From Parvibaculaceae bacterium Mf 1.05b.01 (GTDB lineage: Bacteria > Pseudomonadota > Alphaproteobacteria > Parvibaculales > Parvibaculaceae), in the NCBI GenBank assembly GCA_000509225.1, contig BAOK01000001.1, positions 620,001 to 684,000 on the forward strand: a stretch of 64,000 nt of DNA. Direction: 5' to 3'. The position numbers and the translations under genes are program-made. Below the pieces are notes generated by a model. It did not search any database. It was not told where the DNA came from and saw only the letters and a list, made by a program, of their open reading frames with translations. This document shows positions 1-37,853 of the stretch, in pieces. Numbering within the stretch: the first letter of the stretch is position 1; the number at the start of each line of letters is the position of its first letter.

Positions 1-1499
1 GCTTTCGCGCGCTTCGTGGCGTTGCGCTAATCATGATGGCGCGACCGGAAGAAGCGATTGCCGACCTGGCTTTCCCTGCATTGGATGATGATCCGCATTC
101 CTCGCTCTGGCGCGGGGTGGCTTACGCAGAATTGGCCCAGTGGGGAGATGCGCGCTTGGCGTTCGAACAGGCAGAGAAAGCTTTTGAGATTTACGGGCCG
201 GACCTGCAGGCTCTATTCAGGATGAAGGCCGCTGAGGCATCACTCGCGACGGGTGATCTTGGTAGTGTTGAATTCAATTTGGACAGGATCCCCGCAGGTG
301 CAGACGACGATCGATGGACAGAACAAGCAGCCCTTACACGCGCCCACCTTTTCGAGGCGTTGGGACGGGTTGATGAAGCCCTTGAAATTTATGATCAACT
401 CCTGACCTCGGATCACAGAGCCATCCTTGCCCGCGCACGTTTTGGCCATGCCGACCTTCGGCATGAACTTGGTGCCATGAGTGACGAAGAGCTGACCAAT
501 GAGCTGCACGCCCTGCGCCTGGTTTGGCGAGGTGACGACCTTGAACTGGCCGTTCTGGAACGCCTGGGCGAGCTGTTGATTGCGAAAGGTGAGGTCGCTG
601 AGGGGCTGGAAATCTGGCGAATGGCCGTTGGGACGTTCCCGGAAACCGAGCGGGCGCGTCGTGTTGCTTCCAGTATGACAGAGACATTTACTGATCTTTA
701 TTTGAGCGGTGGTGCCGACGAGATGGACCCGGTTGAAGCCCTCTCCATCTATTATGAGTTTCGTGAGCTAACACCAATTGGTCGGCGTGGGGATGCGCTT
801 ATTCGCAATCTCGCCGACCGGATGGTTGAGGTTGATCTATTGGATAAGGCTGCAACGCTGCTCCGGCATCAGGTTGATAATCGCCTCCGCGGCACTGCGC
901 AGGCACAGGTTGCCGCCAAGCTTGCCTTGATTGAGCTTATGAACAGGCAGCCATCGGCTGCACTTCAGGCCATTCGGTCGACCAAGCAGGTCCGGTTGCC
1001 CAAAGATCTTACCCATAAACGTCGGTTGCTCGAAGCGCGCGCTCTGACAGACCTTGGATTGTATGATCATGCCTTGGATCTTCTCTCTGAGACAGAAGGC
1101 GAAGGGGTTGCTGACCTGGTCGCCAATATTCATTGGGAAGCACAGCAATGGGCGGTCGCTGCCGCCAATTTCGAAACCGCGCTTGGGGCACGCTGGCGCG
1201 ATCCACTCCCACTTACTGAAGACGAACGGTTTCAGGTCTTGCGTGCTGCCATAAGCTTTTCTCTGGATGATGATGCCATCGGGCTGGAGCGCATGCGGGC
1301 CAAATTCGGAGATCTGATGAGTGCAAGCCCGGATGCTTCAGCCTTTGCTGTGGTCACAGACCCCATTCAAACCAATGGGGTGGCTTTCAGAGACCTCGCG
1401 CGCAGCGTTGCGTCCATCGACACTTTGGACAGTTTTGTGCAGAGTATGGAAGGCAGTTTCTCAGAGCCTTTGGACGGCTTAGATCCAGCGATCAATTGA
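1..1499 (+). CDS. C-terminal part of a TPR-like helical-repeat protein (5'-truncated by the window edge)
   Basis: The frame is open from the first complete codon at position 3, so the Met at 33 is probably internal and the gene begins outside the window. The visible part (about 498 residues) is almost all alpha-helical, with repeated Ala/Leu-rich helix pairs such as LWRGVAYAELAQWGDARLAF and ALTRAHLFEALGRVDEALEI, typical of tetratricopeptide repeats. These suggest protein-protein scaffolding. No enzymatic motif or membrane segment is seen. It converges on fliP, so a flagellar role is possible but only suggested by position. I do not recognise the family. Confidence is high that it is a gene and low for function. 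Confidence 0.75.
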   Translation, partial: FRALRGVALIMMARPEEAIADLAFPALDDDPHSSLWRGVAYAELAQWGDARLAFEQAEKAFEIYGPDLQALFRMKAAEASLATGDLGSVEFNLDRIPAGADDDRWTEQAALTRAHLFEALGRVDEALEIYDQLLTSDHRAILARARFGHADLRHELGAMSDEELTNELHALRLVWRGDDLELAVLERLGELLIAKGEVAEGLEIWRMAVGTFPETERARRVASSMTETFTDLYLSGGADEMDPVEALSIYYEFRELTPIGRRGDALIRNLADRMVEVDLLDKAATLLRHQVDNRLRGTAQAQVAAKLALIELMNRQPSAALQAIRSTKQVRLPKDLTHKRRLLEARALTDLGLYDHALDLLSETEGEGVADLVANIHWEAQQWAVAAANFETALGARWRDPLPLTEDERFQVLRAAISFSLDDDAIGLERMRAKFGDLMSASPDASAFAVVTDPIQTNGVAFRDLARSVASIDTLDSFVQSMEGSFSEPLDGLDPAIN

Positions 1500-30234: not shown

Positions 30235-31749
30235 ATGGAACGTCGAGACTTTTTGCGCGGCTCAGCTGCTGTCGGGGCGCTTGCAACAGTGGCTAAGCCA
30301 ACAGTTGTGTGGGCGGATAGCGACCCCTTTGTTCGATTGGACGGGATGGCCCAGGCTGATCTGGTCCGTCGTGGTGAGGTTTCTTCGCTGGAGCTGGTGG
30401 ACGCGGCGATTTCGCGGATCGAGAAACTCAACCCCAAGATCAATGCGGTGGTGCACACCCGCTATGACAAGGCGCGGGCGTTGGCTTCTTCCGGTGATAT
30501 TCCTGATGGTCCCTTCACGGGTGTTCCTTACCTCATCAAAGACCTTTCTGAGTTGGAGGGAGAACCCCTCACTTTTGGCTCAAAGCTCTTTGGCGGAAAC
30601 GTTGCGGATAGGGATAATGGTGGTGTCGCCCGAGCAAAGGAAGCGGGTCTGATCATCCTGGGCAAAACAAATACGCCGGAGTTTGGTCTGTTGGGGACAA
30701 CGGAGTCGGAGCTTTTGGGGGCCGCGCACAATCCGTGGGACCTTGAGCGCCATACTGGTGGATCAAGTGGTGGTGCGGGGGCAGCTGTCGCCTCGGGCAT
30801 GGTGCCGTTTGCACATGCCAGTGATGGCGGTGGATCAATCCGCATTCCCGCGTCGGTATGTGGTCTTGTGGGCCTGAAGCCAAGTCGATCACGCATGTTT
30901 ACCGAGGGAGATGACGAAATGCCCGGCGACATTGGCGTGCGTCTTGCTGTTAGTCGGTCGGTAAGAGATACAGCGCAGATACTTAATGTCAGTGAGCGGA
31001 ATGATTCTAATAAAGTCTATGAGCCGACGGGGTTTGTCGCGGGTCCAAGTTCCAAACGATTGAAGATCGGGTACAGCACGCTCAACTATGCAGGCAATGA
31101 TGCTGCGCCAGACGTGAAAGCTGCTATTGATGGGACGGCGAAACTTTGCGCTGATCTCGGTCACGAGATAGTTGAAACAAAGCCTTTTCTGAATGCTGAT
31201 GAGTTCCTTGAGAACTTTATGGGTATCTGGGCATCTTCTCCTGCATTTCTTGTCGACAATGCGTGGTTTATTGGTCTCACCCAGCTCCGTTGGACCAGCG
31301 CGGAAGAGGGACTTGAGCCCTGGACACGCGGACTTGCTGAGTGGTTTGAGAAGAAGGAAGCGGCCAATCCCGGTGTTGTTGAAAGATCGGTGGCATATTT
31401 CGATCGGGTGGTTCGGGAATATGACGCCTACTTCGACACGCTGGATGTGGAGCTAACGCCTGTGCTTCGAACGCCTCCGGTTCTGTTGGGTGAGCAGGCG
31501 CCGGGCGTTGCGTTTGATCAGTTGTTCGAACGCACACTCGACTATGTCTCTTACACACCGCAGCACAATGTGGCAGGCACGCCAGCTATCTCCCTTCCAC
31601 TCTTCACGAGTGTCGAAGGGCTTCCCATCGGTAGTCAGTTTGCGACCAAAAGGGGCGGAGAGCGCACACTGCTGGAGCTTGCCTACGAACTCGAAGCTGC
31701 ACGCCCATGGGCGGATCGCTGGGCGCCGACGTCTGCGGTGCATCTGTAG
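30235..31749 (+). CDS. Tat-exported amidase-signature hydrolase
   Basis: Serine amidase of the amidase-signature family (504 residues). The Ser-cisSer-Lys triad is present: Lys102 (PYLIKDLS), Ser177 (GGSSGGAGAA) and Ser201 (DGGGSIRIPAS), with the standard family spacing of 75 and 24. A twin-arginine signal (MERRDFLRGSAAVGALA, cleavage near WAD) predicts folded export to the periplasm. The sequence reminds me of 6-aminohexanoate cyclic dimer hydrolases, but the substrate is inference. Divergent LysR gene suggests inducible expression. Confidence 0.92.
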   Translation: MERRDFLRGSAAVGALATVAKPTVVWADSDPFVRLDGMAQADLVRRGEVSSLELVDAAISRIEKLNPKINAVVHTRYDKARALASSGDIPDGPFTGVPYLIKDLSELEGEPLTFGSKLFGGNVADRDNGGVARAKEAGLIILGKTNTPEFGLLGTTESELLGAAHNPWDLERHTGGSSGGAGAAVASGMVPFAHASDGGGSIRIPASVCGLVGLKPSRSRMFTEGDDEMPGDIGVRLAVSRSVRDTAQILNVSERNDSNKVYEPTGFVAGPSSKRLKIGYSTLNYAGNDAAPDVKAAIDGTAKLCADLGHEIVETKPFLNADEFLENFMGIWASSPAFLVDNAWFIGLTQLRWTSAEEGLEPWTRGLAEWFEKKEAANPGVVERSVAYFDRVVREYDAYFDTLDVELTPVLRTPPVLLGEQAPGVAFDQLFERTLDYVSYTPQHNVAGTPAISLPLFTSVEGLPIGSQFATKRGGERTLLELAYELEAARPWADRWAPTSAVHL

Positions 31750-31823
31750 TATCCAGGTCGGATTTGCAGAATCAAGAAATAGGTGTTTTTCTATATCAGA
31801 AGCGAGCTGAGGAGTGAAATTCA

Positions 31824-33110
31824 ATTACAGCGGAAATTGCAATTCTCAATAAAACGGCGGTCGCATTGGCGGCGGATAGTGCCGTGACGATCCAGGCGGG
31901 TAGCAAGGAAGAGAAGATCTTCGATACAGCTGACAAGCTGTTCGAACTATCGAATTCCAATGCCATTGGCGTCATGGTTTACAATGGTATGAGCTTCATG
32001 GAAGCGCCCTTACCTTCACTTATCCGCCAGTTTCGCACTGAATGCGCCAACGTTGAACGGGTGGAACAAGCTGCCGAGAAGTTTCTGGGCTTTTTGAATG
32101 AATTTGCCCAATCCTCACCCCAAAGAGTTCAGGAAGATGCTGTTCGGCGAATAGTGATCCCAGTTCTTTCGCAAATCAAAAATCGCTATGTAGGGCAAAT
32201 ACAGAGGGGCATCGCTGAGGGCGATTGGTCTCCAGATCAACTTCAGGAGAATCTATCCAAGGCGTTGGATAATGAGATTTCGCTTTTCACCAGAATCTAC
32301 AAAGCTGCTGGTGATGCTAAGTTTGTAGGTGGGAAAAAGCCTGTATTAACTGCAAATCGAGTTGATCTTTTGCAGGAAATTATTGCCGCCGAAATTCCGA
32401 TTGCCAACGATGGCCAGAAGAAAAATTTGCTTGCTATTGCGCGGCTGGCGGTTAGCAGTGTTCGCTTGTCTCAGGCGCGAACTGGGATCGTTGTGGCAGG
32501 CTTTGGTGCTGGAGATTTGTTCCCGACGTTGGTTTCGTACGAAATTGATGGAAGCGTGTTTGGTCGTTTGAAATATGTTGAGACCAATTTGGTCAATATT
32601 GATCGCGATGGTCATAAAGCTAGAGTTTTGCCATTTGCTCAAAAAGAAATGGTCGAAAGGTTTTTGTATGGCTTGGATGAAGATATCGAGCGCGAGGTAA
32701 CTTTGTTTTGCAAAAGGATGATTCCAATCATCTCTGACGAAATATTGACCCGGTTGAAGTTCGATGACCCTGAAGATCTAGAGCGGATGAAAGAGGACGC
32801 AAAAAGGGCTGAACATGCTTTCTCTGAGGCGTTGAAGGAGAAGGCGTTCGAAGAGATTCGTTCAAATTCGCGTGAAGAAATAGAGGATATGGTCGAGTTT
32901 ATGCCTAAGCCAGAGATGGCAAAAATGGCTGAAGCTCTTATTAACCTAACTTCTATAAAACGTAGGGTCTCCAGAGGGATGGAGACCGTGGGTGGTCCCA
33001 TTGATGTTGCTGTAATATCACAAAGTGAAGGGTTCGTGTGGGTCAGGCGGAAGCATTATTTCCCCGAGGAGTTGAACTCAAGGTATTTTAAACGTATGCG
33101 TTCAACGTGA
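31824..33110 (+). CDS. Proteasome-like (Ntn-hydrolase fold) protein, apparent ATT start
   Basis: A TGA stop at 31815 excludes an upstream start, and the only candidate start codon before the conserved N-terminus is ATT 31824, preceded by GAGGAG (31809-31814) at 9 nt. From there the protein is 428 residues. Its N-terminus (initiator, then TAEIAILNKTAVALAADSAV) aligns without gaps with HslV from Thr1 to about residue 22: Thr2 matches Thr1 and Asp18 matches Asp17. Lys38 (DKLFELS) can match Lys33 and NG in VMVYNGMSF the Gly47 region. The C-terminal block (VGGPIDVAVISQSEGFVWVRRKHYF) is beta-rich. The middle (about 90-330) is helical. TTG 31866 would remove the Thr. Unlike its neighbours the region is visibly AT-rich. 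Peptidase activity is inferred only. Confidence 0.75.
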   Translation: MTAEIAILNKTAVALAADSAVTIQAGSKEEKIFDTADKLFELSNSNAIGVMVYNGMSFMEAPLPSLIRQFRTECANVERVEQAAEKFLGFLNEFAQSSPQRVQEDAVRRIVIPVLSQIKNRYVGQIQRGIAEGDWSPDQLQENLSKALDNEISLFTRIYKAAGDAKFVGGKKPVLTANRVDLLQEIIAAEIPIANDGQKKNLLAIARLAVSSVRLSQARTGIVVAGFGAGDLFPTLVSYEIDGSVFGRLKYVETNLVNIDRDGHKARVLPFAQKEMVERFLYGLDEDIEREVTLFCKRMIPIISDEILTRLKFDDPEDLERMKEDAKRAEHAFSEALKEKAFEEIRSNSREEIEDMVEFMPKPEMAKMAEALINLTSIKRRVSRGMETVGGPIDVAVISQSEGFVWVRRKHYFPEELNSRYFKRMRST

Positions 33111-33145
33111 TCGTTTCTAGGATGCATAAACCAAGGAGGACTAAG

Positions 33146-33343
33146 ATGACCGGACGTTCTTACAAGCCTCTATTCCCCGAAGTAGGGGATACGGAAATCA
33201 CAACTACAGAGGCCAGAGCCGATGTTAGTGAAGAGCTTCAAGAGTTGATTGCAGAAACTGAAGAAGAGATCAGGCGCGCGTTTTCGACCAATAGATCTAA
33301 AGTGACGCGGGTTGAAACTGTGGCGGCTTCTGCTGCTCAGTAA
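33146..33343 (+). CDS. Small acidic helical protein, partner of the proteasome-like gene
   Basis: 65 residues starting at ATG 33146 after a perfect AAGGAGGA (33133-33140), one of the best ribosome-binding sites in the window. The gap to the previous gene is 35 nt, so the two are probably one transcript. The centre is an acidic amphipathic helix (VSEELQELIAETEEEIRRAF), and the C-terminus is flexible and ends in Ala-Ala-Gln. No signal or TM segment. I do not recognise the family. It could be an inhibitor, adaptor or substrate of the upstream protein. Confidence 0.75.
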   Translation: MTGRSYKPLFPEVGDTEITTTEARADVSEELQELIAETEEEIRRAFSTNRSKVTRVETVAASAAQ

Positions 33344-33374
33344 GCATTTCCTTAGTTGTATTCTAACGTTGTAA

Positions 33375-33401
33375 AAAAGGGCGCTCTTAAGGTGCCCTTT
33401 T
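33375..33401. terminator. Bidirectional terminator after the proteasome-like pair
   Basis: AAAAGGGCGC (33375-33384) pairs with GTGCCCTTTT (33392-33401), one G-U, with T runs on both strands. It serves the convergent small gene and yjhX. Confidence 0.9.
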
Positions 33402-33405
33402 CTGT

Positions 33406-33663
33406 TCAGCGGTTGTCTGCCTGACCGCGCACGGATTTGATGCCGCGTTCGGTTATGCGGTAAGGCCCTGAATTGCGGGACGCGATGTAGCGTCGCCGTT
33501 TGAGTTTCTTGAAAAGCTCAAGGGTGAAGCCGGTGAGGACCCAGCCGTCGCGGGTTACGCAGATGGCCTCTGTTACTTTGCCGTCTTCATCACGCTCGAG
33601 GATGATCCGGCCTCCTTGAGCCATCACGTGGAGCGCTTTCTGCTCCTGTCTTGAAATGTCCAC
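33406..33663 (-). CDS. yjhX: YjhX/UPF0386 family protein
   Basis: 85 residues when started at the GTG at 33663 (VDISRQEQKALHVMAQGGRI), the exact family length. The frame is open further upstream without conservation. Family motifs: RQEQKALHVMAQGGRI, GWVLTGFTLELFKKLKRR and GPYRITERGIKSVRGQADNR. E. coli YjhX has been described as a toxin partnered by YjhQ; no yjhQ-like gene is adjacent here, so it may have another role. Winged-helix-like. Confidence 0.9.
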   Translation of the reverse strand: MDISRQEQKALHVMAQGGRIILERDEDGKVTEAICVTRDGWVLTGFTLELFKKLKRRRYIASRNSGPYRITERGIKSVRGQADNR

Positions 33664-33689
33664 TGTATTCGTGCCTTGGAGTATCCAAC

Positions 33690-33774
33690 TGTTGCGCAAA
33701 GCAACACGTCCGCGCGGCGATCCGCGGCGCGGGAAACTCGGGGCAACCTCTCAGAACTGTCAAAGACGGTTCTG
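33690..33774. other. Inverted repeats upstream of yjhX
   Basis: TGTTGC (33690-33695) with GCAACA (33701-33706), and a 10-bp hairpin CAGAACTGTC (33752-33761) with GACGGTTCTG (33765-33774), one G-U, 3-nt loop. Neither has a T-tract. The first is 27 bp before the yjhX start and may be an operator. The second may be a structured RNA. Confidence 0.4.
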
Positions 33775-37766: not shown

Positions 37767-37853
37767 GGCCCCATGGCGAAATTGGTATACGCAGCAGACT
37801 TAAAATCTGTCGCCCGTAAGGGCTTCCCGGTTCAAGTCCGGGTGGGGCCACCA
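37767..37853 (+). tRNA. tRNA-Leu (anticodon UAA)
   Basis: 87 nt with CCA encoded. Acceptor GGCCCCA (37767-37773) pairs with TGGGGCC (37843-37849), followed by A73 and CCA. D-arm GCG...CGC, anticodon stem GCAGA/TCTGT with loop CTTAAAA (anticodon TAA at 37801-37803), a long class II variable arm (CCC...GGG) and T-arm CCCGG-TTCAAGT-CCGGG. All arms fold. Confidence 0.97.

What the first reader, a model, noticed from the sequence alone, without database searches (positions are those of the whole stretch)
31824..33110. Proteasome-like Ntn-hydrolase with an apparent ATT start codon
Read from ATT 31824, nine nt after GAGGAG, residues from position 2 onward align without gaps with the first 22 residues of HslV. 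Thr2 is then the catalytic Thr1 after removal of the initiator, and Asp18 and Lys38 match catalytic Asp17 and Lys33. An in-frame stop at 31815 rules out any earlier start, and the first standard start (TTG 31866) would delete the nucleophile. So either a rare ATT start produces the enzyme, or a base error hides an ATG. Automated annotation would call a truncated, dead protein. The helical middle of about 240 residues is not part of a standard proteasome subunit.
Basis: partly seen in the sequence, partly recalled or inferred. Interest (0 to 1): 0.8.

Follow-up and report, generated by a model that had tools for sequence, protein, structure and literature searches.

The report
Prophage-type proteasome relative with ATT start
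A bacterial chromosome has picked up a small two-gene cassette, of a kind often carried by viruses of bacteria, that encodes a relative of the proteasome (the cell's protein shredder) plus a tiny partner protein, and here the first gene appears to begin with the very rare start codon ATT.

Summary
Read from ATT 31824, the ORF gives 428 residues. The 96 other full-length family rows have ATG (85) or GTG (11) at this position, followed by Thr. Of 32 columns invariant in 52 relatives, the window breaks one: the initiator. AlphaFold2 predicts a proteasome beta fold (pLDDT 89; Z 16.8 to yeast beta5, Thr2 on Thr1).

New here: the gene is half of a compact cassette. A same-strand ORF of 40-80 codons starts at its end in 56 of 57 testable non-redundant clade members (control 26 of 160) and looks protein-coding; later rows gave 4 of 7. 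Six of six congeners have the empty site. Many relatives lie in prophages, satellites and plasmids.

The architecture fits PMI-4 of Fuchs et al. 2021, an uncharacterised proteasome homologue; cluster membership could not be tested. Best reading: a mobile threonine-hydrolase cassette, probably anti-phage or lysogenic-conversion cargo, its enzyme restrained by the small partner. The ATT is probably a real base that lowers or abolishes enzyme output. Activity, partner role and use of ATT are untested.

The parts
31750..33405 (+). inserted cassette (about 1.65 kb), absent from six congeners, lower GC than its near flanks
   Evidence: empty-site comparison; GC 0.43-0.49 against 0.52-0.58 in the near flanks; limits are approximate
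31809..31814 (+). GAGGAG Shine-Dalgarno-like motif, 9 nt before ATT
   Evidence: read in sequence
31815..31817 (+). in-frame TGA that excludes an earlier start
31824..31826 (+). ATT codon at the position of the family start codon
   Evidence: 96 of 96 other rows have ATG or GTG here
31824..33110 (+). proteasome-fold Ntn-hydrolase-type gene, 428 codons plus stop; family phrog_5990, PMI-4-like architecture
31827..31829 (+). codon for Thr2, predicted catalytic Thr1 after removal of the initiator
   Evidence: invariant 53 of 53 and 14 of 14; aligned with residue 1 of mature yeast beta5
32121..32459 (+). first helical insertion (about residues 100-212), after helices H1/H2
   Evidence: AlphaFold2 secondary structure; helix names by my comparison
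32679..32897 (+). second helical insertion (about residues 286-358), between H3 and H4
   Evidence: AlphaFold2 secondary structure; helix names by my comparison
33133..33139 (+). AAGGAGG, strong Shine-Dalgarno-like motif of the partner gene
   Evidence: read in sequence
33146..33343 (+). small partner gene, 65 aa (ATG 33122 would give 73 aa, and GTG 33107, overlapping the previous stop, 78 aa)
   Evidence: conserved position, alignable C-terminal helix in alphaproteobacterial relatives
33375..33401 (+). terminator-like hairpin with U-rich 3' side after the pair
   Evidence: 11-bp stem, -17.2 kcal/mol for 33366-33410, z -3.82; not listed by the simple terminator scan
30235..31749 (+). left flank: amidase-like gene
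   Evidence: syntenic in six congeners; the name is my reading of the translation
33406..33699 (-). right flank: YjhX-like gene
   Evidence: Pfam PF09857, E 7.8e-37; syntenic in four of six congeners

Best explanation
A mobile two-gene cassette. Gene 1 makes a threonine N-terminal hydrolase with a proteasome beta core that needs no propeptide: the initiator is removed and Thr2 becomes the nucleophile, with Asp18 and Lys38 (predicted fold, residue invariance and start position shown; activity inferred). Two helical insertions sit where proteasome rings pack, so it probably acts as a monomer or small oligomer on a narrow set of substrates (inferred). Gene 2 makes a partner of mostly 45-75 residues, most likely an inhibitor or adaptor that keeps the hydrolase in check (frequent pairing and coding shown; role inferred). 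Placement next to repressor, Q, holin or element ends in temperate phages and satellites suggests lysogenic-conversion cargo, most likely protection against other phages (inferred). In this genome the cassette was inserted between an amidase-like gene and yjhX (shown by the empty sites), and the ATT is most likely a real base that cuts or abolishes enzyme output while the partner keeps its own strong ribosome site (inferred). On the ATT alone I put a used weak start at about 0.5, a real base that silences the gene at 0.3, a sequence error at 0.2.
For: Fold: AlphaFold2 on 53 rows, pLDDT 89.1, pTM 0.84; best VIA-align match yeast beta5, Z 16.8, rmsd 3.4, 183 aligned, model 2..412 on chain 1..195. 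Active site: T2, D18, K31, K38 invariant in 53 of 53. Start. No decay of the coding part: 31 of 32 invariant columns kept; pN and pS against the five relatives compared are like those among relatives. Partner: 56 of 57 against 26 of 160; pN below pS in 72 of 72 pairs, many not independent. Mobility: empty site in 6 of 6 congeners; 70 loci in IMG/VR, 13 phage and satellite records and 10 plasmids with the relative L061 as query, 10 plasmids with the window protein; 3 of 61, 15 of 385 and 10 of 398 genomes (each count includes the window's own genome). Cargo position: genes among the 88 neighbours scanned include Q-like, CI-like and other repressors, integrases, holins; phage records. Same genome: infC appears to start with ATA after a stop and a Shine-Dalgarno motif. 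In print: the GTC start of sigR sets its ratio to the downstream antagonist rsrA (PMC5472188, passages).
Against: No activity, expression or phage data. No PADLOC match for protein or partner (of eight relatives one weak partial match), and at E 1e-10 three PADLOC families, each matched by one of 88 neighbours, so no defence-island signal. Partner sequences from distant hosts do not align convincingly. Members looked at later pair less regularly: of seven TAE members four have the ORF by the rule of 38 codons or more; L143 has 35 codons, L151 a 64-codon ORF 80 nt away, L147 none. A sister clade sits between queA-like and tgt-like genes, which suggests a housekeeping use in that lineage. Pfam's proteasome profile does not match.
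Confidence: 0.45

Rival explanations
1. On the ATT: it is a start-loss mutation. The base is real, the enzyme is no longer made, and only the partner is. The cassette is a fresh pseudogene.
For: ATT occurs in none of the 96 other family rows; the gene is dispensable, being absent from six congeners; the partner has its own strong Shine-Dalgarno motif.
Against: The rest of the gene shows no decay: 428 open codons, 31 of 32 invariant columns kept; GAGGAG stands at a usable distance; the genome seems to use a non-canonical ATA start for infC.
Confidence: 0.3
2. On the ATT: it is a sequencing or assembly error for ATG or GTG and the gene is ordinary for its family.
For: The 96 other rows and the 16 rows have ATG, GTG or TTG.
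Against: The genome is two contigs at completeness 100 and contamination 0.05, and the error would have to be a substitution exactly at the start codon, with the other 31 invariant columns untouched. No reads were available, and I did not measure the error rate of this assembly.
Confidence: 0.2
3. On the function: the enzyme is a ligase or transpeptidase like connectase and the small protein is its substrate or tag, conjugated to targets.
For: Same fold family as connectase, a protein ligase (PMC8665760, parts read); the small partner is usually encoded next door.
Against: I saw no motif shared by the partners across hosts, which a tag recognised by a conserved active site should have; the insertion sites differ from the one described for connectase.
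Confidence: 0.1
4. On the function: a phage-serving protease that degrades host proteins or processes phage proteins during lytic growth.
For: Some copies lie in structural or lysis gene regions.
Against: Others are transcribed against the late operon, or sit in satellites, plasmids or a plain chromosome.
Confidence: 0.15

Closest known systems
PMI-4, Proteasome homolog with Multiple Insertions 4 (Fuchs, Alva, Lupas 2021, PMC8665760)
   Same: proteasome core with catalytic Thr, Asp, Lys; no propeptide; helical insertions after H1/H2 and between H3/H4; scattered over bacterial phyla and phages
   Different: the paper reports no informative genomic context or co-occurrence; here a small downstream partner gene and cassette mobility are found.
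HslV
   Same: Thr1, Asp17 and Lys33 counterparts; bacterial
   Different: own HslV is 183 aa as listed, without insertions; HslV works with HslU; the window genome has this separate HslV (L001)
Anbu
   Same: top row for the first, shallower model, Z 16.7, tied with proteasome subunits
   Different: PMC8665760 describes a C-terminal helical extension and no such middle insertions, and its Table 1 does not mark Anbu for phages
20S proteasome beta subunit
   Same: top row for the better model (yeast beta5, Z 16.8)
   Different: part of a ring of alpha and beta subunits, with propeptide; 12% identity over 183 aligned residues
Connectase
   Same: proteasome-fold enzyme outside the ring proteases (PMC8665760)
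   Different: archaeal, insertion between S3 and S4, lacks H1/H2 according to the paper
phrog_5990
   Same: the window protein and five of five relatives given match it, the window over 1-424
   Different: nothing: the same family, category 'unknown function'

Membership tests
proteasome-like Ntn-hydrolase superfamily | proteasome beta core fold | tested here: met
   predicted model: VIA-align Z 16.8, rmsd 3.4, 183 aligned to yeast beta5
proteasome-like Ntn-hydrolase superfamily | N-terminal Thr (or Ser), Asp17 and Lys33 counterparts | tested here: met
   T2, D18, K38 invariant in 53 of 53; K31 is invariant too, so the choice of K38 rests on alignment
Pfam Proteasome PF00227 | match over the curated cut-off | tested here: not met
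   no hit for the window protein; one of eight relatives at E 0.15, below cut-off
PMI-4 | long insertion after H1/H2 | tested here: met
   helices 100-131, 137-162, 177-190, 196-211 in the model
PMI-4 | insertion between H3 and H4 | tested here: met
   helices 286-310 and 316-358 before 362-383; helix names by my comparison
PMI-4 | occurrence in several phyla and in phages | tested here: met
PMI-4 | clusters with PMI-4 reference sequences | not testable with these tools
   reference HDY66466.1 and the alignments are not held here
HslV | compact subunit without insertions | tested here: not met
   428 aa with two insertions
HslV | sequence similarity over the core | tested here: inconclusive
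   hhalign to the own HslV, a single sequence, aligns no core; one relative matches the phage HslV family phrog_1040 at E 0.0033
connectase | two-helix insertion between S3 and S4, no H1/H2 | tested here: not met
   helices 63-73 and 80-96 follow S4, and no helices lie between 39-41 and 47-54 in the model; strand names by my comparison
known anti-phage defence system | match to PADLOC-DB 2.0.0 models | tested here: not met
   no hit for window protein or partner; of eight relatives one weak partial hit (LeoBC, E 7.5e-5)

The most novel reading that the evidence does not exclude
A phage- and satellite-borne two-component system in which a proteasome-fold enzyme acts on, or is aimed or held by, a dedicated tiny partner protein: either a new class of phage-encoded immunity (a proteasome-type protease held by a small antagonist until infection) or a connectase-like conjugation of the partner to targets; with one host tuning the enzyme-to-partner ratio by an ATT start codon.
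Probability: 0.25. Interest if true: 0.9.

Novelty: new variant of a known kind. Interest (0 to 1): 0.62.

Why it matters
The newer proteasome homologues have had little functional lead: the 2021 survey says it found no informative gene context (PMC8665760). A small gene that usually travels with this family in prophages, satellites and a chromosomal cassette gives a direct handle on function (binding, inhibition, substrate). If the pair is phage immunity, it would bring proteasome-type proteases into that field. The ATT start, if used, would be another natural non-canonical start codon in a two-gene unit where the ratio of the products may matter, as in sigR-rsrA.

Tried and rejected
Pfam, NCBIfam and PADLOC on the window protein gave nothing usable; phmmer against PDB sequences gave only a chance hit, and the profile's best proteasome match was E 0.083, so sequence alone does not prove the superfamily. 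Repeats: no pair stands out at the cassette ends; the one tRNA found, tRNA-Leu at 37767, is 4 kb away. Promoter and terminator scans: no more than chance; the fold of the start region is ordinary (z 0.18). Defence-island association: not found. An upstream start is barred by the TGA at 31815; the GTG at 31814 is in another frame and gives a short peptide. Against viral structures, Foldseek's two matches at E 0.001 or better were a proteasome-named phage protein and a Gordonia phage protein, neither a close relative. HslV, connectase and known PADLOC systems were considered and set aside (see Membership tests).

Literature: 'proteasome-like' with anti-phage and prophage, zero papers; four protein accessions, zero papers. 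In some searches, judged by the search listings, I saw no paper on this family beyond PMC8665760. The library holds open-licence PubMed Central papers only. PMC9122126 on antiviral hotspots of phages and satellites (passages) has neither 'protease' nor 'proteasome' in its main text. PMC11497404 held none of the terms looked for; PMC11445065 gave nothing on ATT starts. The other papers in the listings, also those, were not opened.

Full report
What is there. The ORF at 31824-33110 is open for 428 codons when read from ATT 31824. GAGGAG ends nine bases before it, and an in-frame TGA at 31815-31817 bars any earlier start. The first standard start, TTG 31866 (414 aa), would remove the Thr.

Relatives. 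A protein search of genome contigs gave 10 relatives (L002-L011, 32-59% identity) and of viral contigs three; the 13 begin at the same residue with ATG or GTG. With the alignment as query, IMG/VR gave 70 loci, some of them contigs already seen. In 98 full-length family rows the codon before Thr is ATG in 85, GTG in 11 and ATT in 2, the two being this same locus. After removal of near-duplicates 67 remain (57 ATG, 9 GTG, 1 ATT). Of 118 profile matches, 17 partial ones were dropped before the count, and L025, L030 and L034, which lacked the N-terminal motif I used; they too read Met-Thr. As the motif holds a Thr, the Thr of these rows is partly by selection; in alignment A1, made without the motif, T2 is invariant in 14 of 14. 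Sixteen rows looked at later have ATG, GTG or, in L144 and L154, TTG.

State of the coding part. In the 53-row alignment A2, T2, D18, K31 and K38 are invariant. Of 32 columns invariant in the other 52 rows the window keeps 31; the lost one is the initiator (GTG starts are written M by the tool). It keeps 63 of 66 columns conserved at 90% or more (0.95; median of the other rows 0.98). Against the five relatives compared its pN is 0.28-0.36 and pS 0.77-0.84; four comparisons among relatives gave pN 0.30-0.36 and pS 0.81-0.88 (pS is near saturation). So only the start codon is unusual.

Fold. The model from 14 rows has mean pLDDT 81.2, the one from 53 rows 89.1 with pTM 0.84. Rows this close are ties. 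The helical residues form two insertions, about 100-212 and 286-358. Sequence-only evidence is weak: no Pfam Proteasome hit, hhalign to the own HslV aligns no core, best proteasome hit of the profile among PDB sequences E 0.083, one relative matches the phage HslV family at E 0.0033. Among viral predicted structures the best match is a phage protein named proteasome beta type-2 subunit, E 4.8e-5.

Family in print. Fuchs, Alva and Lupas 2021 (PMC8665760; parts 1-4 of 6 of the text, and the Discussion) describe 22 new proteasome homologues. PMI-4 has insertions after H1/H2 and between H3/H4, 501 sequences at nr90, and is marked for phages in Table 1. The architecture here fits PMI-4, or less well PMI-3 (28 sequences, not marked for phages). 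I could not test cluster membership. [quoted passage not shown] The family is phrog_5990, unknown function.

The partner gene. Directly downstream, 33146-33343 encodes 65 aa behind AAGGAGG. Of 59 non-redundant members of the T-A-E or T-T-E clade (window included), 57 could be tested (L008 and L111 could not) and 56 have an ATG ORF of 40-80 codons starting between -50 and +30 nt of the stop; L110 does not. The control, other ATG ORFs of at least 300 codons in the same loci on either strand, gave 26 of 160 (Fisher p 2e-30). Related loci are not independent, and about one in six single hits could be chance. In 72 pairs of partner ORFs at 50-97% identity pN is below pS in 72; many pairs share a member. 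Alphaproteobacterial partners align through a C-terminal helix (roughly I..T...I..AF); many others carry LREWQK.FNP or a related start. I saw no convincing alignment between the two groups, and six partners scanned have no PHROG match better than E 0.045. Against regular pairing: of seven TAE members first seen four have the ORF; L143 has 35 codons, L147 none, L151 a 64-codon ORF 80 nt off. In E. coli ETEC-2265 RefSeq lists no gene for the partner, while several phage and satellite records list one.

Mobility. Six congeners have the amidase-like gene beside yjhX (L121-L124) or near radC without yjhX (L125, L126), and no match to either cassette gene. The cassette replaces a short intergenic stretch, has lower GC than its near flanks, and ends with a hairpin of -17.2 kcal/mol, z -3.82. 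I saw no integrase gene in it and no repeat at its ends. The family is in 3 of 61 relatives, 15 of 385 genomes of the class (some hits partial or split) and 10 of 398 of the phylum (the window's own genome included each time). With the relative L061 as query it is in 13 phage or satellite records (Streptococcus 9, Stenotrophomonas 2, Providencia 1, Porphyromonas 1), 10 plasmids, and 22 of 5,426 E. coli genomes by DNA, 9 of them over at least 80% of the query and the other 13 over a short end only. The listed places are annotated 'hypothetical protein', one plasmid place has no gene. Among 88 neighbour proteins, PHROG matches include Q-like antiterminators, CI-like and other repressors, integrases and holins. 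Placements seen: between a DNA methylase and a holin in a Providencia phage, the last two genes of two Streptococcus satellites but mid-cassette before a RelBE pair in a third, the last gene of Streptococcus phage Javan85, against the late operon in an E. coli prophage and a Stenotrophomonas phage, in the structural region of a Porphyromonas phage. This is a pattern of accessory cargo of temperate elements.

A sister clade (T-S-E) sits between queA-like and tgt-like genes in L130 and L134, followed by a larger gene with a basic C-terminal tail (gene names are my reading of the translations). So pairing with a downstream gene may be a wider rule of this family, with a non-mobile branch.

The ATT. 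In this genome infC appears to start with ATA, right after a stop and a Shine-Dalgarno motif, so a non-canonical start is probably used there. PMC5472188 (passages) states that E. coli infC starts with ATT, that IF3 represses such starts, and that the GTC start of sigR keeps it in proportion to its downstream antagonist rsrA. By analogy, an ATT start on the enzyme with a strong site on the partner would shift the balance to the partner. Equally, the gene may simply be switched off. I rate a used start at 0.5, silencing 0.3, error 0.2; none of these was tested.

Mechanism proposed. Threonine hydrolase with partner control, carried by mobile elements for lysogenic conversion, most likely against other phages. 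Shown: predicted fold, active-site invariance, frequent pairing, coding of the partner, mobility. Inferred: activity, partner role, phage defence. Against: no PADLOC match for the pair, one weak partial match among eight relatives, and at E 1e-10 only three PADLOC families, each hit by one of 88 neighbours.

Noticed in passing
L130, L134 (also L129, L131, L135): A non-mobile-looking sister clade (MTSE...) sits between queA-like and tgt-like genes in L130 and L134 and is followed by a larger gene with a basic tail, such as KKRGFFGWLFGR in L130.
   Followed up: partly
L145, 1980-2075 minus strand: The window genome's infC appears to start with ATA directly after a stop and a GGAGG motif, with no standard start upstream in frame.
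   Followed up: partly
window 33406-33699: yjhX-like gene next to the cassette; no match to it beside the amidase-like gene in two of six congeners (L125, L126).
   Followed up: no
L109, 13308-13457: The partner ORF is not annotated in E. coli ETEC-2265 RefSeq although counterparts in several phage records are.
   Followed up: partly
L028 and L032 (G075:C2:386508-387768): One relative is split into two overlapping pieces, a possible frameshift; the named plasmid CP131057.1 shows two pieces at matching coordinates with no annotated gene.
   Followed up: no
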